The notes below the pieces were generated by a model. The model ran no database searches. It was not told where the DNA came from and saw only the letters and a program-made list of their open reading frames with translations. Source: Yoonia maritima (lineage in GTDB: Bacteria; Pseudomonadota; Alphaproteobacteria; Rhodobacterales; Rhodobacteraceae). Taken from it: a DNA stretch of 64,000 nt. Position numbers and translations under genes: made by a program. Shown piece by piece: positions 23,313-48,198 of the stretch. Where the stretch lies: contig NZ_PVTP01000004.1 in the NCBI RefSeq assembly GCF_003003285.1, positions 248,001 to 312,000 of the forward strand. The letters run 5' to 3'. Position 1 is the stretch's first letter, and every line of letters starts with the position of its first letter.

Positions 23313-23958
23313 ATGGTCAACGAAATCAACCTTACTTTGATATTGATTGCGGCGCTGGTCGCAAGCGCGAGCCCCGGCCCCGCGACTTTAGCGATTGCGG
23401 GTACATCTATGTCTGGCGGGCGAAAGTCGGGTTTGTCGATCGCATCCGGGATTATGACAGGGTCGTTGGTGTGGTCAGTATCGGCAGCGTTGGGGCTGGG
23501 TGCCATCATGTCGGCACATGTTTGGCTGTTCGAAATCGTTCGATATTTTGGCGCAGCCTATCTCTTGTTCCTCGCATATAAATCCGCAAGGTCAGCGCTT
23601 TCAAAAAGTGACATAAAGCTAAAACTCGTTGGCGGCGCATCATTGAAGCTATTTCGTAAGGGGCTACTGCTTCACCTGACAAATCCCAAAGCAATTTTAT
23701 TTTTCGGCTCTTTGTATTCGCTGGGCATTCCTGTGAACGCATCTGTGACGGACCTTGGGGTCGTGATTATAGCTGTTGGCCTGCAGAATTATAGCTGTTG
23801 GCCTGCAGAGTTTTGTCGTCTTTCACGGTTATGCGTTTTTATTTTCCTCACAAACCGCGGTGCGTTACTATATTCGCCTAAGAAGATGGTTTGAGGTGAT
23901 ATTTGCGATTGGCTTTGGTGCCGCCAGCTTCAAAATACTGACGGCGCGCTTGCATTAA
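23313..23958 (+). pseudogene. LysE-family amino acid exporter, frameshifted by a 22-bp duplication
   Basis: The N-terminal ~155 residues are a normal LysE/RhtB exporter: MVNEINLTLILIAALVASAS, PGPATLAIAGTSMSGGRKSG, then LLHLTNPKAILFF. At 23766-23809 a 22-bp unit stands twice in tandem. As 22 is not a multiple of 3, the frame shifts and ends in a foreign 35-residue tail at 23894. The proper end (from AVGLQSFVVFHGYAFLF to ILTARLH) continues in the next frame to 23958. Removing one copy restores a single ~207-residue protein of normal family length. ATG 23313 has AGGGGA upstream. Confidence 0.88.
23766..23809 (+). repeat. exact 22-bp tandem duplication inside the LysE gene
   Basis: Positions 23766-23787 and 23788-23809 are identical over 22 bp; the bases flanking the pair differ. 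This is the sole cause of the frameshift in the exporter gene. Confidence 0.95.
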
Positions 23959-24021: not shown

Positions 24022-25653
24022 TTATGCTGATGTGCCATCAGGGCGAAAACGTGTGTTTTCAGATACTTGGAAGCGTCCATTGTTCAGCTTGTGGATTTTA
24101 CTTTGGCGCAGTAGGCGGCCAAATGAACGCAGCCCATCCTCGCGGCTGATTTCCTGTGATGTGGCGCTTTGGACTTTTTTCATGACCTGAGGGCGTGAGA
24201 AATCATCATCGCCTTCCACGAATGCGATATACGCTGCCGCTGCCTCAAGAAGATCGCCCAGCTCTGTAACGCCTTGTTTCTTAGCAAATGCTGCGAAACC
24301 GCCTGAGTTGGTCGCGGTGGATGTTTCTTTCTTCGATGCGATTTTACGCAACCGCTCTGCCGCGGCATCCACGGGTTTATCCGCATCTGTCGAACGCTGG
24401 GATGGCACCAGTCGCAGCGGGGCAGGTTCGCGCGCCTCGCTTTTTATTTCCGCTTCATGCGCACCAAGGTCTTCGCGAAACGCGTCACTTTTTTCATCAG
24501 CCGGGCCAGCGTCGCCCAGCTGGCGGGCGGCTTCGGTCGCAGCTACGGCTGCTTTAAGCTGCGCAAAAGCGTCACGATGCCGGCGGCCTTCCGGCTCGTT
24601 TAGGCGTTCGTCAGTTTGTGACAGGATCCGGCTCATTGACGATTCTGGCGGCTCAGGAAGTTCTTCTCGCTTGGTCGTCTGGGCGTCACGTTCTTCGATT
24701 TCACGGGCGACGTCTTCGACTTCTGCCTTTAGGTCGAAATGATCTTCGTCAGCGAATTCGTCTTCTGCCTCATCTTCATCATCTGTCGCGGCTGTCAGGA
24801 CCAATGGTCCTGTGCTATCTTCTTCATCGATAGCATCTTCAAATGCCTCTTCGTCGTCTTCGAATTCAGCGGTCTCAAAATCATCTTCAACTTCGTCTGC
24901 TTGCGCTTCTTCCTCGGCGGCGTCTGCGGCAGCAAGATCTGCATTGCGTTTGGCAAGATCAGCAAGACGCTGTGCGAGTGGGTTTACTGGAGCCTCCTCC
25001 TCGTCTTCATCTTCTTCATCAAGCTCAGAGGTATCCTCGGGTGTCTCGGCAACCGGTGCTTGAACATGGCCGCGTCCGACGACCGCACGAATGCGTTGTA
25101 GCTTGGCTGCGATGCTCTCTTCTTCCTCGGCGTCGTCTTCATCAGCAGTAACGTCTTCGTCTCGGGACTGAAGCTGCGCTGTTTCTTCTTCCAAGTCCTC
25201 TACAAATTCGTCTTCTTCGTAGGTTATATTGGTGAAGTCTTCATCATCAAACGCGTCTTTGGCGTCATCTTCATCGGTAAGCCGAATAGGTTCTTCGTCT
25301 TCAATATTGTCTTCGAAGTCATCTATTGTGTCTTCGTCCTCAGTCGCGATGTTTTCAGCAACGACTTCGTCTTCATCGTCAAACGCGTCTTCGTCGTCAG
25401 ATGCGACACGCAAGCTGACGTTTTGACCTTCCCCTGCGATTTCAACATCTGTATCTGCTTGTTCGGCTGTGAGCAGGGCAAGAGTTTCCATATCAGGCGC
25501 TTGGGGTTCGACATCCATAAAACGATCGTGGCCCGCGAGATCGTGAAAATAAGAGACGACAGTTTTCATCGTTTCAACCGAATCCTCGAACCCTTCTAGT
25601 CGGCAAGAGAAGGTTCCATAGGAGACATCTAAAATCTGGTTGCTTTTGGTCAT
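24022..25653 (-). CDS. highly acidic, mostly disordered conserved protein
   Basis: A 543-residue protein in three parts. Residues 1-60 form a compact domain (YGTFSCRLEGFEDSVETMKT, then VVSYFHDLAGHDRF). Residues ~85-340 are a low-complexity Asp/Glu run with short helical islands (ESIAAKLQRIRAVVGRGHV, NPLAQRLADLAKRNADL). The last ~90 residues (AKKQGVTELGDLLEAAAAYI to NGRFQVSENTRF) look like a small folded, winged-helix-like domain. I believe homologues with the same ends and variable acidic middles occur across Rhodobacteraceae, without a known role. There is no signal peptide or membrane segment. Binding to basic proteins or nucleic-acid partners would fit, but this is a guess. Confidence 0.8.
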   Translation of the reverse strand: MTKSNQILDVSYGTFSCRLEGFEDSVETMKTVVSYFHDLAGHDRFMDVEPQAPDMETLALLTAEQADTDVEIAGEGQNVSLRVASDDEDAFDDEDEVVAENIATEDEDTIDDFEDNIEDEEPIRLTDEDDAKDAFDDEDFTNITYEEDEFVEDLEEETAQLQSRDEDVTADEDDAEEEESIAAKLQRIRAVVGRGHVQAPVAETPEDTSELDEEDEDEEEAPVNPLAQRLADLAKRNADLAAADAAEEEAQADEVEDDFETAEFEDDEEAFEDAIDEEDSTGPLVLTAATDDEDEAEDEFADEDHFDLKAEVEDVAREIEERDAQTTKREELPEPPESSMSRILSQTDERLNEPEGRRHRDAFAQLKAAVAATEAARQLGDAGPADEKSDAFREDLGAHEAEIKSEAREPAPLRLVPSQRSTDADKPVDAAAERLRKIASKKETSTATNSGGFAAFAKKQGVTELGDLLEAAAAYIAFVEGDDDFSRPQVMKKVQSATSQEISREDGLRSFGRLLRQSKIHKLNNGRFQVSENTRFRPDGTSA

Positions 25654-41287: not shown

Positions 41288-42298
41288 ATGCAAGCGCCCT
41301 TCACCACACTTTCCGAATTTCGCGAAACCTTGGCGAAAGCGCCAGAGTCTCATGCTACCGCTTTTCAGGGGGCTCAGGACCGCAACAGCCAGCTAACCAA
41401 ACCACCCGGTGCCTTGGGCCGGCTCGAGGATCTTGCTATTTGGTATGCGGGTTGGCGGGGAAACCCAAAGCCACAAATCAATGCGCCACAGGTGGTGATT
41501 TTTGCGGGTAACCACGGTGTTTGTGCCCAAGGTGTGTCTGCGTTTCCGCCAGAAGTGACCGAGCAGATGGTCGCAAATTTCGAACATGGTGGGGCGGCGA
41601 TCAATCAACTGTCGAAAGCATTCGGCGCTACGATGAACGTGCACGCTTTGTCACTTGATACGCCGACGGCTGATTTCACCCAAGCGCCAGCAATGACCGA
41701 AGCCGAAGTTGTCAGCGCCTTGCAAATCGGCTGGGCAGCCGTTGATCCTGCCAGTGATCTGTTGGTCACAGGCGAAATGGGGATTGGTAATACCACTTCG
41801 GCTGCTGCGGTTGCGGCGGCTGTGCTGGGTGGCGATGCTGCAGATTGGACGGGGCGCGGAACGGGCGTCGATGACGCGGGCCTTGCGCGCAAGGCCGAGG
41901 TCGTCGCGAAAGGGGTCGCGCTTCATGCGTCCAGCGATCCGTTAGAGGCATTGCGTTGTTTGGGCGGTCGCGAGCTTGCCGCGATGGCAGGTGCGATTGC
42001 AGCCGCACGTCACTGCCGTATCCCAGTGATCCTTGACGGGTTCATTTGTTGTGCTGCTGCTGCGACCCTGGCCAAGGCCGTTGATGGTGCTTTGGACCAT
42101 GCTGTTGCAGGTCATCAAAGCGCGGAAGCTGCGCATGCGCGTTTGCTGACTGCCCTTGGAAAAGAACCGTTGCTAAGCCTTGGCTTGCGCCTTGGCGAAG
42201 GATCAGGTGCGGCACTCGCGATTGGCATCTTGAAAGGCGCAGTCGCCTGCCATTCTGGTATGCTTACATTCGCCGAGGCAGGCGTGAGCGCGGGCTAA
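41288..42298 (+). CDS. cobT: nicotinate-nucleotide-dimethylbenzimidazole phosphoribosyltransferase
   Basis: Makes alpha-ribazole-5'-phosphate for the lower ligand of B12. The 336-residue enzyme shows [55 protein letters not shown] and the catalytic Glu in [11 protein letters not shown]. It is full length. It is divergent from cobS and overlaps the convergent antiporter gene by 4 bases. Other cobalamin genes are not in the window. Confidence 0.95.
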
Positions 42299-44169
42299 GA
42301 TTTCTTATTCTCGTTCGCTTGCTGGCGCGTCGCGAGCGCCGTTTCTAGATCATTGTTGAGTGCGCGAGAGCGCTCAACATAATCGGGAAGATCAGCAACG
42401 GGGATGCCGGGTTTCCACAGGCTCGCTAGTTCGCGCATTGCTTTGCGGTCATGCTGATAGAACGTCTGCTCGGCCTCTGCGGCTTCGAACTCTGACAGGC
42501 CAAGGTTTTCCAAAGCATAGCGACCAGCACGCAAAGAACTGTCGAACATTTCGCGCACAATGTCATTGGCACCAGCTGCGTATAGTTCATAGACGTGCAC
42601 CCGGTCACGTGCACGGGCAACGATATGTAGGTCAGGTCGGGTTTTGCGTGCATAGGCGACCAGCTTATTTGCTGAAGCTTTGTCGTCGATTGCGACAACC
42701 AACACTTTGGCCTCTTCGAAGCCTGCGGCACTAAGTAGATCTGGCCGCGTTGGATCTCCGAAGAAGCCGCGAAACCCGAACTTTCGCATCATTTGTACGG
42801 TTTGCAGATTGCTATCAATCACGACAGTTGAAAACCCGGCGCTTTGAACAAGGCGGTTTACGATTTGCCCAAAGCGCCCGATGCCAGCAATAATCACAGT
42901 GCCTTTTTCGTCGACTTCGTCATGTTCTGGGTCGTCGGGTTCGCTCATCCGGCGGCTTAGTAATTCATAAAGGATGAACAGGAGCGGAGTGATGAGCATA
43001 GACAAAGCAATCACCAACAATAACCGCCCCGCCAACCCATCTGATAGCACGCCTTGTTGCGATGAAAATGACACCAATACAAATCCAAATTCACCTGCCT
43101 GCGCCAGCCCAAGCGTGAAAAGCCACTGATCCTTGCCCTTAAGTTGGAATGCGCGCCCAAGCCCGTAAAGGATCACACCTTTGGTGAGCATCACGCCAAG
43201 CGTCAGTGCGAGAATGTACAGCGGTTCTGCAAAAAGCAGATCAAAGTTGATCCCCGCGCCAACAGTAATAAAGAACAAACCAAGCAAAAGCCCTTTGAAG
43301 GGTTCAAGGTCGCTTTCAAGTTCATGCCGAAACTCAGAGTTCGCAAGAACCACGCCAGCCAAGAAGGTTCCCAAAGCAGGGGACAGCCCAACCATCCCCA
43401 TGAGTACGGCGATTGAGACGACCAATAGCAACGCAAAGGCCGTGTACATTTCGCGTAAACGTGCGTGATGGATGTAACGAAACAGTGGGCGAATGAGGAA
43501 TATGCCAACGAGAATAATTGCGATGACCGCGCCCAACGTAACTAATGTCACGCCCCAGCCAGGCAACCCATCTACCAAACTCATGCTGCCGTGCGTGCCA
43601 TGCGTATCATCGGCCACACGTTGTACTGATCCATCGGGCGCAAGCCGCAGTAACACGGGCGTTGCAAGAAGCGGCAAAAGTGCCAGCATTGGAATGACTG
43701 AAATATCTTGGGTCAATAAAACCGAAAACGTGGATCGTCCTCCGCCGGTTTGCATAAGCTTTTTTTCAGTTAGCGTTTGCAGGACGATTGCTGTCGATGA
43801 CAGGGCGAAAATCATGCCGATAGCCAGTGATATCGTCCAGTCATATCCCATGGCGATGCTGATCCCCATGATTGCAAGCATTGTCAGTAATACTTGCATG
43901 CCGCCTAGCCCGATGAGCCGTTTGCGCATATCCCACAAGGCGCGCGGTTCAAGCTCTAGCCCGATTAAAAACAGCATCATAACAACGCCGAATTCCGCGA
44001 AATGTTGAATATCTTGGGCTTCGGTGCCGACTAACCCTGTGACCGGACCAATGACGATTCCAGCCAGCAAGTAGCCCAACACTGACCCAAGGCCGAGACG
44101 CGCCGCAAAAGGTACCGCGATAACCGCGGCCCCAAGATATATCGTGGCCTGAAGAAGAAAGTTTTCCAT
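42295..44169 (-). CDS. CPA2-family monovalent cation/proton antiporter (KefB/KefC-like)
   Basis: A 624-residue inner-membrane antiporter. About 12-13 helices (residues ~1-370) carry the family run [20 protein letters not shown] and [21 protein letters not shown] cytoplasmic TrkA-N Rossmann domain follows ([19 protein letters not shown]), ending with a helical tail. It likely exchanges K+ or Na+ for H+, with nucleotide or glutathione control as in KefB/C. ATG 44169 ([13 protein letters not shown]) is preferred over an upstream start. No KefF/G-type partner gene is adjacent. Confidence 0.88.
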
Positions 44170-44260
44170 GTATTCAGATATGGCGGCCCGCTGCGAAATG
44201 CGCAACGCGCGAAGCGCTGGTGCTGCGATAAATTGCTAACTGTGTCGGTTGGTAGATTTC

Positions 44261-46795
44261 TTAACTACCCGGAAGTTCAAGAACGACCGTGCGTCCACGT
44301 TTCACGTAATTCAGGATGCCGTCGCCAATTGCGGTAACTTGTCCACCATCAAGGCTGCTACCAATTTCGACGTGTGTATAACGCCCATTACCAAGCCTCA
44401 CGAGCGCGCGCGGCGAGTTTGGCCTGCCATAAATACCAATGAGGTTCAGGTCGCGTAGTCGAATGGCACCGTCTTGTGTTGCAGCGCGCGCGACGCCGCC
44501 GGGGACGGGGGCATAGTTTTGCGGCGCGACGGATGCCGCAGCCGGAGGCGGTGCCGCAGCAGCGACTGTTGGTTGTGATGCCTGTCTTTGACGTGCAGCC
44601 GCGACAACGCGATCAAAGTTGTTTGGGCGTGTTTCTGGGCGGCGTGATGTTGCGACTGCTTGGTCAGTCATTCCGATAAAGGGGTCCGTCGCGCTTTCGG
44701 CGATAACATCTTGCAGAATTGCCGTAATATCAGGTGTGCTCGGGTCCGGCGTTGGTGACAGCGTCACCAAACCATCTGGACGAGGCTGTGGCCGAACTAC
44801 GTTTGGCAAAGACGACACGATCAAGTTGTCTGTTTCGGAGGTTAGCGTATCTAACCCAACACCACCTGGTGTGGGTGCTTGTGCAACTTCGGGTTCTTGT
44901 TCATCAGGGAGCACTGCATTCGCGGGGCGTAATGGTGGCACGATGTCTGGCCGGCCAAGAATGACAACAACGCCATCTGGTATACCAGAGACAAGCGCCA
45001 TACGCTCCAGTTCGTCTTCTGATAACTCAGGCCGTTCACGTAGCGTCAAATCCGGCAAGCCAGCGTAGACCATTGCGCCTTCGGGGGTCAGTGTGCCTTC
45101 GGCGGTCGGAATAATATGCCCGTCGGCGTCTATCGCAAAAACAACATCCGGGGCGGGTGGGTTCACCGGGGCGATAAAGCTTAGGTCGGGCTCCATGCCA
45201 TCGCGTGCGGGCAGGGATGGTTGCGCAGGATGATCGGGCGCGGACAGGCTGACAGGCAGATCAACAGCAGCCGTCGCTTCGACGCGTGGTGTATCGAAAA
45301 GCCGTGGTGCACGTTGCCAAACACCAGTCGCATCATAGGCAGTTTGGGCTTCGGCAGGGCTTAGGACCCGGCCAGATGTCGCAGGCAACGCAGTAAGCGG
45401 TGTTTCGGTCGGGACCGGCGGTGTTGTGGTGAATAGTGTCGGGGGAAGGTCAACGGTGCCGGCAAGTAGAGGATCAGGCACCGATGGCACGGTAAACGCG
45501 TTTAACTGGACGGGAATACTCGCATCGTTGTCGTCCGTAGCAAAAGACGGCATCTCAGTAATGCTTAGCTCTGACACTGTGGGGGCTATGTCCGACAGTG
45601 GAATTTGCGCGACGACCGTTTCGACGGGTTCTTCGGTGGTCGTATTTTCAATTGACGGCGTGACGACCACAGGGGCGATATCTGGTATTTCGATGGCGCC
45701 GGTTTCAACCGTTTGCGTCAATTCGGCGGAACCATCCATTTGCATCCACGCGAATAGCGCGATGGCTGCAACGCTTGCGGCAAGCCCGCCCGCGATGAAC
45801 ATCGGTTTTTTAGTGCTATTTGCTGCGATAGGCGTTGGCCGTGTTTTCGTCGCAGTCAGTCCGGCACCTTTGCGAGGTGTAGCCAATTTAGGCGCAGCGG
45901 CGCTTAAAACTGGCTTTTTCACTGCATTTGCATGATGTTCCGCAATGATCAGATTTAGGCCGCTGATGTCAGCAAGTATTGGATTATCAGCAACAACTGG
46001 CGCACGCGGAGCTATGATTTCAGCAGGTGCGTGGACAGTAGGCTTGGAGGTATGGACTTCGCGAACGATCCTGTCGATCCATATGGTTGTTTCGACAGTT
46101 GGTAGCGCAGGGGCCTCAACGGATTCCTCTGGTGCTGTTTCTATGGGCGGTGTTTCTTCGGCGATGATTGGGGCGAGCGCTGCGGCCAGATCAAACCCTT
46201 GGTTATCTTCCACGATCGCGTCGGGCAGCGGGTCCATGATCAGCAAGCGGGACTTAACGCGGGTGCCGACTTTCATGACCGGCAGTTGGTCACGTTCAAC
46301 CGTAAACTCTGGGCCTAGGATGTCAGCCGCTACAGATGTCGCGCCAAAGAAGACTTCTTTTTGAAAGGTGAATGGCTCTGGAACGGCGACGAATGCAACG
46401 GGGTTGAACTGATGGGCGCTGGCAAAACTTTCTGCCTCTTGCAGAGTTTCGCGGGCGACGGCGGCGATATGCGTTCGACCGCCAGAGCGTTCATAGTCTA
46501 CAACCAGATCGTCCAGATCATAAGGGGTGGCACCATCAAGTGCAGCATGGATGTCATCAAGGTTGGTCTGAGTGCTATCGATTGCCAGATATTTGATCTG
46601 ATCCATCGGAATCACAAGTTTTGTACGTATCTCACTGGGGTCCAGTTTGGTCGCTTTTGCACGTAAATCGGCAAGAATAGCATCAAGGTTGTCGTCTTCG
46701 ACATCCGCTGTGCCGACACGTTTCCAGCCACGTGCAACACGATGTAAAAGTTCAATGCCTTCGAAAGAAAGAGATAGCGCAAAATTTGTCGTCAT
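44261..46795 (-). CDS. orphan membrane protein with PilM/GspL-like and PilP/GspC-like ends
   Basis: An 844-residue protein of unknown function. Residues ~1-190 look like the actin-like cytoplasmic part of PilM/GspL (ALSLSFEGIELLHRVARGWK; TKLVIPMDQIKYLAIDS). A linker leads to one membrane helix (332-351), then a ~420-residue Pro/Thr/Ala-rich periplasmic region. The last ~70 residues (LRDLNLIGIYGRPNSPRALV to KRGRTVVLELP) match the pattern of PilP/GspC homology regions. Type II secretion and type IV pili normally split these parts over two or more proteins, and no other such gene is nearby. Similar proteins have been mislabelled as translation initiation factor 2 in related genomes, to my recollection. 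Confidence 0.72.
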   Translation of the reverse strand: MTTNFALSLSFEGIELLHRVARGWKRVGTADVEDDNLDAILADLRAKATKLDPSEIRTKLVIPMDQIKYLAIDSTQTNLDDIHAALDGATPYDLDDLVVDYERSGGRTHIAAVARETLQEAESFASAHQFNPVAFVAVPEPFTFQKEVFFGATSVAADILGPEFTVERDQLPVMKVGTRVKSRLLIMDPLPDAIVEDNQGFDLAAALAPIIAEETPPIETAPEESVEAPALPTVETTIWIDRIVREVHTSKPTVHAPAEIIAPRAPVVADNPILADISGLNLIIAEHHANAVKKPVLSAAAPKLATPRKGAGLTATKTRPTPIAANSTKKPMFIAGGLAASVAAIALFAWMQMDGSAELTQTVETGAIEIPDIAPVVVTPSIENTTTEEPVETVVAQIPLSDIAPTVSELSITEMPSFATDDNDASIPVQLNAFTVPSVPDPLLAGTVDLPPTLFTTTPPVPTETPLTALPATSGRVLSPAEAQTAYDATGVWQRAPRLFDTPRVEATAAVDLPVSLSAPDHPAQPSLPARDGMEPDLSFIAPVNPPAPDVVFAIDADGHIIPTAEGTLTPEGAMVYAGLPDLTLRERPELSEDELERMALVSGIPDGVVVILGRPDIVPPLRPANAVLPDEQEPEVAQAPTPGGVGLDTLTSETDNLIVSSLPNVVRPQPRPDGLVTLSPTPDPSTPDITAILQDVIAESATDPFIGMTDQAVATSRRPETRPNNFDRVVAAARQRQASQPTVAAAAPPPAAASVAPQNYAPVPGGVARAATQDGAIRLRDLNLIGIYGRPNSPRALVRLGNGRYTHVEIGSSLDGGQVTAIGDGILNYVKRGRTVVLELPGS

Positions 46796-46905: not shown

Positions 46906-48198
46906 TCAGCTTGTCGCCGCCGAAAGCGCCTGATCTAGGTCCGCGATCAGGTCGTTCGCGTCCTCGATTCCGATGGACAGGCGCACGATGTTAGGGCCAG
47001 CGCCTGCGGCTTCTTGTTGTTCAGGGGACAGTTGTCGGTGCGTGGTACTGGCAGAGTGAATAATCAGGCTGCGCGTGTCGCCAAGGTTTGCCACATGACT
47101 AAAGATTTCCAGACTATCAACAAGTTTGACGCATGCGTCATACCCACCTTTGACGGCCACAGTGAACAGTGCGCCGGCACCTTTGGGGCAAATCTTTGGG
47201 ACCAATCCAGCATAGGGTGATGATGCAAGCCCTGCATAAGTCACGTAATCGACACGCGGATCGGCCTCGAGCCATTTTGCGATGGTTTGGGCGTTTTGCA
47301 CATGGCGGTCCATCCGAAGCGAAAGCGTTTCAATCCCCATCAGCGTATAATGGGCTGCTTGGGGGTTCATAGTCATGCCAAGGTCGCGCAATCCAACCGC
47401 GATCCCATGAAAGGTAAACGCGAGCGGGCCAAACGTCTCGGCGAATATTGTGCCATGATAGGCTGGCTCGGGTGCGGATAGGGACGGGAACTTGTCATTG
47501 GCAGACCAGTCAAATTTCCCGCTGTCCACGACACAGCCACCTGTGACGGTCCCGTTGCCAGTTAGGTATTTGGTTGTCGAATGCACGACCAACGTCGCGC
47601 CATGTTCGATGGGGCGGCACAGGTATGGGGTCGCTGATGTGTTGTCGACGATCAGCGGAACACCCGCGTCATCGGTAATCGCAGAAATTGCATCAAGATC
47701 AGAAATATGCCCGCCGGGGTTCGCAATCGTTTCGCAGAACACCGCACGCGTATCATCGTCAATAGCAGCCTTCACTGCGGCATGGTCATCAAAGTCAACG
47801 AATTTCGCCGACCATCCGAAACGTTTGATTGTCTGGCTGAACTGCGTAACCGTGCCGCCATAAAGGCGGCTGGATGCCACGATGTTACGCCCCGGCTGCA
47901 TGAGCGGAAACAGCGCCATAATTTGCGCTGCATGGCCCGATGAACAACAAACGGCACCAGCACCGCCTTCTAATGTGGCAATGCGTTCCTGAAGTGCGGC
48001 CACTGTCGGATTGGTCAGGCGGGAATAAATATATCCCACTTCCTGCAGGTTAAACAAAGCCGCTGCATGCTCTGCGTCGCGGAACACATATGCAGTGGTC
48101 TGATAAATCGGAACTTGTCGTGCTCCGGTCGCGGTGTCGGGGCGGGCGCCCGCGTGAACTTGAAGCGTGTCGAACCCTAAATTGGGACCATCAGTCAT
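46906..48198 (-). CDS. metY: O-acetylhomoserine sulfhydrylase (aminocarboxypropyltransferase)
   Basis: Makes homocysteine (or methionine from methanethiol) from O-acetylhomoserine. The 430-residue PLP enzyme of the Cys/Met metabolism family has YIYSRLTNPTVAALQERIA, VDNTSATPYLCRPIEHGA and VHSTTKYLTGNG, with the PLP Lys in STTKY. The long insertions after the Lys (KFDWSANDKFPSLSAPEPAY) are typical of MetY rather than MetB/MetC. Upstream there is a short TATGAA/TTCATA inverted repeat (48211-48224), but no SAM-II riboswitch signature in the 88-bp gap. Confidence 0.92.
   Translation of the reverse strand: MTDGPNLGFDTLQVHAGARPDTATGARQVPIYQTTAYVFRDAEHAAALFNLQEVGYIYSRLTNPTVAALQERIATLEGGAGAVCCSSGHAAQIMALFPLMQPGRNIVASSRLYGGTVTQFSQTIKRFGWSAKFVDFDDHAAVKAAIDDDTRAVFCETIANPGGHISDLDAISAITDDAGVPLIVDNTSATPYLCRPIEHGATLVVHSTTKYLTGNGTVTGGCVVDSGKFDWSANDKFPSLSAPEPAYHGTIFAETFGPLAFTFHGIAVGLRDLGMTMNPQAAHYTLMGIETLSLRMDRHVQNAQTIAKWLEADPRVDYVTYAGLASSPYAGLVPKICPKGAGALFTVAVKGGYDACVKLVDSLEIFSHVANLGDTRSLIIHSASTTHRQLSPEQQEAAGAGPNIVRLSIGIEDANDLIADLDQALSAATS

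What the first reader, a model, noticed from the sequence alone, without database searches (positions are those of the whole stretch)
44261..46795. Single protein with PilM/GspL-like cytoplasmic end and PilP/GspC-like periplasmic end
In type II secretion and type IV pili the actin-like inner platform protein and the outer-membrane-contacting protein are separate genes, linked through small membrane partners. Here both ends appear in one 844-residue chain with one membrane helix and a very long Pro-rich periplasmic spacer, and no ATPase, pilin or secretin gene is close. It could be the core of a reduced envelope-spanning machine whose other parts lie elsewhere, or a free-standing envelope sensor.
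Basis: partly seen in the sequence, partly recalled or inferred. Interest (0 to 1): 0.6.

Follow-up and report, generated by a model that had tools for sequence, protein, structure and literature searches.

The report
One-protein remnant of a secretion machine
In a large family of mostly marine bacteria, two pieces of a protein-export machine (type II secretion) appear joined in one membrane protein that is kept almost everywhere, even in species where no outer-membrane channel or motor of such a machine was found, which suggests that it now does a different, still unknown job in the cell envelope.

Summary
The 844-residue ORF has a GspL/PilM-like cytoplasmic end (residues 1-180; AF2 pLDDT 91, best VIA Z 10.3 to GspL), one predicted membrane helix (332-350), a long Pro-rich arm and a GspC/PilP homology-region (HR) end (782-842; Z 10.0 to GspC HR). 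The N-domain was found in 184 of 198 Rhodobacteraceae genomes. The window's genome has one secretin and one T2SSE ATPase, both in its Tad cluster. Of 22 family genomes without a secretin match, 18 have the N-domain, and 15 of those 18 also lack a T2SSE match. So it does not depend on a T2SS, T4P or Tad machine. Two genomes show a likely ancestral state: separate gspL-gspM-gspC genes, in one of them at the same metY-SIMPL locus; T2SS operons of two other alphaproteobacteria carry the same L-M-C trio. I read it as a T2SS assembly platform condensed into one chain and kept as a free-standing envelope-spanning scaffold. Both ends are under strong purifying selection. Partners and task are inferred, not shown. 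A clue: some related phages carry the N-domain alone beside a bactofilin gene. Five searches of an open-licence paper library listed no description of it.

The parts
44261..46795 (-). Whole gene, 844 aa, fused GspL-like/GspC-like bitopic membrane protein
   Evidence: relatives with the same architecture
46256..46795 (-). N-domain, residues 1-180: short GspL/PilM-like actin-fold domain, predicted cytoplasmic
   Evidence: omega 0.09
45803..46255 (-). Cytoplasmic Pro-rich linker, residues 181-331, poorly conserved
45746..45802 (-). Predicted membrane helix, residues 332-350
   Evidence: hydropathy
44453..45745 (-). Pro-rich periplasmic arm, residues 351-781
45296..45370 (-). Conserved arm motif 1, residues 476-500 (column consensus LsP.EA.riYaATGVWqRAPr; exact TGVW in 54 of 81 distinct proteins)
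45032..45163 (-). Conserved arm motif 2, residues 545-588 (consensus PPap...f..D..Gfi.ATpeG..tP.G..V.AG.P)
44591..44668 (-). Conserved arm motif 3, residues 710-735, with an RPxxRP element (another, RPQPRP, starts at residue 667-668)
44264..44452 (-). C-terminal GspC/PilP homology-region-like domain, residues 782-844
   Evidence: omega 0.01-0.04
46906..48198 (-). Conserved neighbour, Cys/Met metabolism PLP enzyme (metY-like); similar gene in 20 of 21 loci compared; marks the shared locus
42295..44205 (-). Conserved neighbour, KefB-like cation/proton exchanger; similar gene in 17 of 21 loci

Best explanation
It is the inner-membrane assembly platform of a type II secretion system condensed into one chain. 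An alphaproteobacterial gspL-gspM-gspC trio outlived the loss of its own ATPase, pseudopilins and secretin; then GspM and the periplasmic ferredoxin-like (PilN) domain of GspL were lost, and the GspL cytoplasmic domain was joined to the GspC arm and HR domain (inferred from split forms and T2SS operons). Today it most likely works as a free-standing envelope-spanning tether: the GspL-like head docks on a cytoplasmic protein, the proline-rich arm with its conserved short motifs crosses the periplasm and holds partners along its length, and the HR domain docks on a periplasmic or outer-membrane protein. Shown here: predicted domains and topology, conservation, selection, retention without a secretin or T2SSE ATPase, a split form at the same locus. 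Inferred: partners, direction of the change, and the tether task.
For: Folds of both ends. Split forms: L167 and L168 have a 343-380 aa GspL-like gene (N-domain profile E 8.0e-16 and 1.1e-14; PF05137 PilN 33.5 and 23.4 bits, cut-off 22.8), a GspM (PF10741 24.4 and 42.3 bits, cut-off 21.7) and a GspC/PilP-like gene (L168: T2SSC 2.5e-4, PilP 0.005; L167: PilP 0.065; all under cut-off) in a row. In L168 they lie beside a divergent SIMPL gene and, one gene further, a metY-like gene, as the fused gene does in most loci (SIMPL-type gene divergent in 16 of 21, of which 5 were scanned and all 5 are SIMPL; metY-like in 20 of 21). T2SS operons with the order L-M-C-D in two other alphaproteobacterial genomes (most genes named by eye). 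Independence: N-domain in 184 of 198 genomes; 18 of 22 secretin-less genomes have it; 15 of those 18 also lack T2SSE, 12 of the 15 being >= 90% complete. Of these 15, 14 also have the HR end: in 7 in a frame of the same length and place as the N-domain, in 5 in a frame of 622-690 aa whose N-domain place was not listed, in 2 (G187, G197) in frames of other lengths; G060 has no HR match. Selection: omega HR 0.011, N-domain 0.094, distal arm 0.16, membrane-proximal arm 0.45. The [KR]P-x(0-3)-[KR]P motif occurs 242 times in the arms of 81 distinct proteins against 9.9 +- 3.1 (maximum 20) in 200 shuffles.
Against: No partner is identified. The tree does not place the split pair clearly basal: one long-branched fused protein, L173, falls outside it, so fission is not excluded by topology; loss of GspM and PilN from an L-M-C state is the simpler reading. 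Only 2 of 198 genomes were seen with the split form, and one of them (G084) has a long secretin and a strong T2SSE match together on another contig, so its trio may still serve a T2SS. Family scores of the window protein are below every curated cut-off, and Foldseek TM-scores of the N-domain are below 0.5. N-domain presence is slightly lower in secretin-less genomes (18/22 against 166/176, Fisher p 0.054; two of the four lacking it are 74-76% complete). In 2 of the 15 key genomes the two ends are in frames of different lengths and in 1 the HR end was not found. Topology is predicted, not measured. Prepilin peptidase and pilins were not searched.
Confidence: 0.62

Rival explanations
1. Accessory subunit of the Tad (Flp) pilus: the HR domain binds the N-terminal domain of the Tad secretin and the N-domain the CpaF ATPase.
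For: The only secretin and T2SSE ATPase found in the genome are in the Tad cluster, and 166 of 184 genomes with the N-domain also have a secretin match.
Against: 15 genomes have the N-domain but neither a secretin nor a T2SSE match; 12 of them are >= 90% complete. In the window's genome it lies on contig C4 and the Tad cluster on C7.
Confidence: 0.1
2. Cytoskeleton-linked morphogenesis or division scaffold: the N-domain docks on bactofilin or another cytoskeletal protein, and the arm holds cell-wall enzymes.
For: Some related phages or prophages carry the N-domain alone, and in 6 of 7 such loci (probably one phage lineage) a bactofilin-like gene lies two genes away in the same head-tail module. 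Foldseek places FtsA after GspL/PilM.
Against: Co-carriage in one phage lineage is weak evidence; the seventh locus (L062) has no bactofilin in the matching interval; linkage to a host bactofilin was not tested.
Confidence: 0.17
3. Decaying relic without a present function.
For: No partner genes were found; length and linkers vary widely (740-1568 aa); frames of the two ends differ in 2 of 15 genomes checked.
Against: 184 of 198 genomes keep the N-domain; omega 0.01-0.09 at both ends; conserved arm motifs.
Confidence: 0.03
4. Envelope sensor: signals from the periplasmic HR end reach the cytoplasmic domain.
For: Bitopic layout with small folded domains at both ends and flexible linkers.
Against: No enzymatic or DNA-binding output domain was found. 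An AsnC/Lrp-like gene lies nearby in some loci (named by eye), but beside an HPPD-like gene that it more likely serves.
Confidence: 0.08

Closest known systems
GspL (T2SS assembly platform; EpsL, PulL, XpsL)
   Same: N-terminal cytoplasmic actin-like fold followed by one membrane helix; split relatives L167/L168 look like short GspLs
   Different: About 142 residues align where the solved GspL cytoplasmic domains have 226-238; no PilN/ferredoxin-like domain match; no linked T2SS genes
GspC / PilP (HR domain proteins)
   Same: C-terminal HR fold after a Pro-rich periplasmic stretch
   Different: Carried on the same chain as a GspL-like head; kept in genomes without a secretin match
XpsCLM/GspCLM subcomplex (PMC11981180; passages only, including part of the abstract)
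   Same: C, L and M form a trimeric complex whose formation is independent of the secretin, so such a unit can exist apart from it
   Different: There it is a subcomplex of a complete T2SS; here no M is fused and L- and C-like parts are one protein
Mitochondrial T2SS (PMC10128026; passages only)
   Same: A reduced T2SS described as an adaptation
   Different: There GspF and GspG are kept while L, M and C are missing or unrecognised; here L- and C-like parts remain
PilM (type IV pili) and FtsA
   Same: Same actin-like superfamily by fold
   Different: Larger proteins (333-390 residues in the matched chains); different partners (recalled)

Membership tests
GspL (T2SS protein L) | N-terminal cytoplasmic actin-like domain | tested here: met
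   VIA Z 10.3 and 10.2 to GspL/EpsL over 141-142 residues
GspL (T2SS protein L) | Periplasmic ferredoxin-like/PilN domain after the membrane helix | tested here: not met
   No PilN match in the window protein at E <= 10, while split L167 and L168 match over cut-off
GspL (T2SS protein L) | Encoded with gspE, gspF, pseudopilins and gspD | tested here: not met
   Neighbours; one T2SSE and one secretin match in the genome, both in the Tad cluster
GspC/PilP | HR domain fold | tested here: met
   Z 10.0 and 8.6
GspC/PilP | Curated family cut-off (PF04351, TIGR03021) | tested here: not met
   Window protein: 11.6 of 25.6 bits, 17.7 of 34.65 bits. T2SSC hit 2 of 23 members at E <= 5 and not the window's
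GspC/PilP | Binds the N0 domain of a secretin | not testable with these tools
   18 of 22 secretin-less genomes keep the N-domain, so a secretin is unlikely to be a general partner
Functional T2SS or T4P in this genome | Secretin and GspE/PilB-type ATPase outside Tad | tested here: not met
Functional T2SS or T4P in this genome | Prepilin peptidase and pseudopilins outside Tad | not tested
   Not searched
FtsA | FtsA actin-like fold | tested here: inconclusive
   FtsA rows come after the best GspL and PilM rows (Z up to 7.9)
Tad pilus component | Occurs only with a Tad secretin and CpaF | tested here: not met
   15 genomes with the N-domain but neither

The most novel reading that the evidence does not exclude
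A T2SS assembly platform has become a self-sufficient envelope-spanning scaffold, working with no pilus-type ATPase and no secretin: a new type of trans-envelope tether central to Rhodobacteraceae biology, whose cytoplasmic head is mimicked by phage-borne stand-alone copies and may be linked to the bactofilin cytoskeleton.
Probability: 0.42. Interest if true: 0.78.

Novelty: new variant of a known kind. Interest (0 to 1): 0.64.

Why it matters
It is kept in nearly all sampled members of a large bacterial family, yet the paper searches listed no description. If right, it shows that the GspC-L-M platform can be separated from secretion and given a new job, gives a natural case of machine reduction with a surviving intermediate, and offers a way to ask what the GspL and GspC domains do on their own. 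The phage-borne copies of the head suggest that the host protein may matter during infection.

Tried and rejected
Tad partner: rejected as the general role because 15 genomes with the N-domain lack both secretin and T2SSE matches. Dispersed T2SS: not supported in the window's genome. SIMPL neighbour as obligate partner: rejected, since the window's genome has no SIMPL match, although a SIMPL-type gene is divergent to the gene in 16 of 21 loci. Profile search of PDB sequences with the N-domain found only chance rows (CENP-S and others, best E 0.041); with the C-domain, GspC and PilP came among the first at E 0.039-4.2, with one unrelated enzyme between them. PHROGs: no match for the window protein or for the phage N-domain. 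The N-domain alignment gave 20 pattern matches in viral contigs, none confirmed; a phage copy as query gave 4 loci and no match in 50,697 phage records. Twelve regions around long secretins of other Rhodobacteraceae (L176-L187) hold no ORF with an N-domain profile score better than E 2, so those secretins' own GspLs, if present, are not close to this family. A first tree attempt failed on its alignment and was redone. Literature: this protein; bactofilin link. I saw listings only (15 of 57, 2 of 2, 6 of 6, 15 of 502, 2 of 2, 10 of 101 and 9 of 10 papers), and passages of PMC10128026 and PMC11981180.

Rows dropped: of 80 loci, 79 gave an N-domain stretch and 67 a C-terminal stretch; 49 and 46 of these went into the structure alignments. 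L086 and L133 (masked stretches), L116, L132 and L148 (frame ends early), and cut genes were left out of the 86-row set; that set includes the window and five genomes present twice, so the motif and helix counts were redone on 81 distinct proteins, while the column consensus still includes the duplicates. dN/dS used 4 relatives; synonymous change is near or at saturation in three, so only L075 is firm. The last two of the 22 secretin-less genomes (G206, G211) are not printed and were found by elimination; one search searched them for T2SSE. Of the 186 whole-protein matches, weak ones may be only the small HR paralogue; one search is the better count.

Full report
What is in the sequence. The ORF at 44261-46795 on the minus strand encodes 844 residues in a Rhodobacteraceae genome whose closest named relatives by the N-domain are Yoonia and Loktanella. 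The neighbours are a metY-like PLP enzyme upstream and a KefB-like exchanger downstream, with cobT- and cobS-like genes beyond (named from memory from their translations). No pilin, ATPase or secretin gene was seen among the ORFs at 40-52 kb.

The N-terminal end. An AlphaFold2 model of residues 1-195, built with 49 relatives, has mean pLDDT 91.2. The eleven best Foldseek matches in the PDB are GspL cytoplasmic domains and PilM (E 2.3e-7 to 3.0e-6), though with TM-scores of only 0.39-0.49; FtsA follows. VIA-align gives Z 10.3 and 10.2 for GspL/EpsL and 9.9 for PilM, with FtsA up to 7.9 and Hsp70-type rows up to 6.3. About 142 residues align to solved GspL domains of 226-238, so it is a shortened version. 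Sequence profiles alone would not have shown this: PilM_2 hits only 3 of 24 members, best E 0.1, and the PDB profile search gave chance rows.

The C-terminal end. The model of residues 750-844 is confident only from about residue 782. VIA-align gives Z 10.0 for the GspC homology region (rmsd 1.2 over 59 residues) and 8.1-8.6 for PilPs, then LspC, a Dot/Icm chain (7.5), PulC and GspB (6.5); the first unrelated row is at 3.6. Pfam PilP hits 23 of 23 members, best 4e-6, although the window protein itself scores only 11.6 bits against a cut-off of 25.6.

Between them. The only membrane helix found by hydropathy is at 332-350, so about 150 residues of cytoplasmic linker come first. Among 81 distinct full-length proteins (740-1568 aa, window included) all have a predicted helix; 70 have exactly one and 11 more. 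The arms contain a [KR]P-x(0-3)-[KR]P motif 242 times, against 9.9 +- 3.1 (maximum 20) in 200 shuffles; all 81 have at least one. There are three conserved stretches, the clearest with the column consensus ATGVWqRAPr (exact TGVW in 54 of 81). Between the window gene and its closest named relative (L075) omega is 0.094 in the N-domain, 0.011 in HR, 0.16 in the distal arm, 0.22 in the cytoplasmic linker and 0.45 in the membrane-proximal arm. The short membrane-helix segment gives 0.64 on 25 codons, too few to weigh. So it is a functional gene whose two ends and distal arm matter most.

Distribution. Search with the whole protein matched 31 of 31 genomes sampled from the genus and 186 of 198 sampled from the family; with the N-domain alignment, 184 of 198. 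In a sample of the class, 7 of 385 genomes matched: five of the same family, and two others whose hits are GspL-like genes inside T2SS operons. The locus is stable: a metY-like gene in 20 of 21 loci, a KefB-like gene in 17, and a divergent SIMPL-type gene in 16, of which 5 were scanned and all 5 are SIMPL. The window's own genome has no SIMPL match.

No machine to belong to. The window's genome has one secretin and one T2SSE ATPase match; both lie in a cluster with RcpC, TadB/TadC-type and T2SSF genes, the Tad pilus. In the family, 22 of 198 genomes have no secretin match; 18 of the 22 have the N-domain, and 15 of these 18 have no T2SSE match, 12 of them at least 90% complete. I then looked for the HR end in these 15: 14 have it. 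In 7 (G086, G097, G108, G147, G178, G206, G211) it lies in a frame of the same length and place as the N-domain; in 5 (G075, G124, G155, G166, G202) it lies in a frame of 622-690 aa but the N-domain's place was not printed; in 2 (G187, G197) the two ends are on the same contig in frames of different lengths, so the gene may be broken or misassembled there; in G060 no HR end was found. N-domain presence is a little lower without a secretin (18/22 against 166/176, p 0.054), partly because two of the four lacking it are 74-76% complete. The protein thus does not need a secretin or a pilus-type ATPase. Prepilin peptidases and pilins were not searched.

The likely ancestor. In two family genomes (G084, G224) the N-domain belongs to a separate 343-380 aa protein with a C-terminal PilN domain, followed by a GspM (PF10741) and by a GspC/PilP-like protein. 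In G224 a divergent SIMPL gene and, one gene further, a metY-like gene lie beside the trio, the arrangement of the fused gene (SIMPL by Pfam; metY-like by eye). T2SS operons in two genomes of other alphaproteobacterial families carry the order gspL-gspM-gspC-gspD with other T2SS genes upstream (L, M and C of one were scanned, the rest named by eye). The simplest series is T2SS, then L-M-C trio, then fused L-C. The tree supports the split pair (98) but puts one long-branched fused protein outside it (92), so topology alone does not prove the direction. A caution: G084 also has a long secretin and a strong T2SSE match together on another contig, so its trio may still serve a T2SS; G224 has one secretin and one T2SSE match.

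How it may work. In T2SS, GspL's cytoplasmic domain anchors the ATPase and GspC links the platform to the secretin (PMC10128026, passages); C, L and M form a complex independently of the secretin (PMC11981180, passages). Here both contacts must be to something else, at least in the genomes without those partners. I propose a free-standing tether with a cytoplasmic docking head, a periplasmic arm with docking motifs and an HR head at the far end. This task is inferred. Candidate partners are open: SIMPL is often adjacent but absent from the window's genome.

A phage clue. Stand-alone copies of the N-domain (about 163-201 aa, 27-28% identical to the window's over the aligned part) lie in head-tail modules of prophage-like regions in two genomes of the genus (L062-L064) and in four virus contigs (L155-L158; PHROGs was run on L063 only). 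In 6 of these 7 loci a bactofilin-like gene lies on the opposite strand two genes away; it was confirmed by Pfam in the three scanned and read from closely similar sequence in the others. An acyl carrier protein gene was seen in three (L063, L157, L158; Pfam for the latter two). The copies with bactofilin are close relatives, so this is probably one event. It suggests, no more, that the head acts with the cytoskeleton or that phages interfere with it.

Verdict. It is a new variant built from known domains rather than a new fold. The paper searches listed no description of it; the library holds open-licence papers only and most of the long lists were seen only at the top.

Noticed in passing
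L062:6841-7332, L063:7020-7532, L064:7086-7622, L155-L158: Stand-alone copies of the N-domain in phage head-tail modules; in 6 of 7 loci with a bactofilin-like gene on the opposite strand, and in 3 with an acyl carrier protein gene.
   Followed up: partly
L065:6850-7110 (+), L067:7051-7371 (-); window's genome contig C3:266556-266804: A small stand-alone HR-like protein of about 86-106 aa without an evident membrane helix; in L065 and L067 near purF-like, SDR-like and surE-like genes (named by eye). A cytoplasmic HR domain would be odd.
   Followed up: partly
L045-L059, L061 and L168: A SIMPL-type (DUF541) gene is divergent to the fused gene in 16 of 21 loci and to the split gspL in L168, but no SIMPL match exists in the window's genome.
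   Followed up: partly
window 23766-23809: An exact tandem duplication of 22 bases inside an ORF that looks like a LysE-type transporter (name from memory); 22 is not a multiple of three, so the reading frame probably changes there.
   Followed up: no
window 24022-25653 (-): A 543-aa very acidic protein (long Asp/Glu-rich stretches); it coincides with the strongest AT skew of the window.
   Followed up: no
L176-L187: Some Rhodobacteraceae carry long secretins (about 600-880 aa), as in T2SS; the regions around twelve of them hold no ORF related to this N-domain by profile, so those systems look separate from the fused gene.
   Followed up: partly
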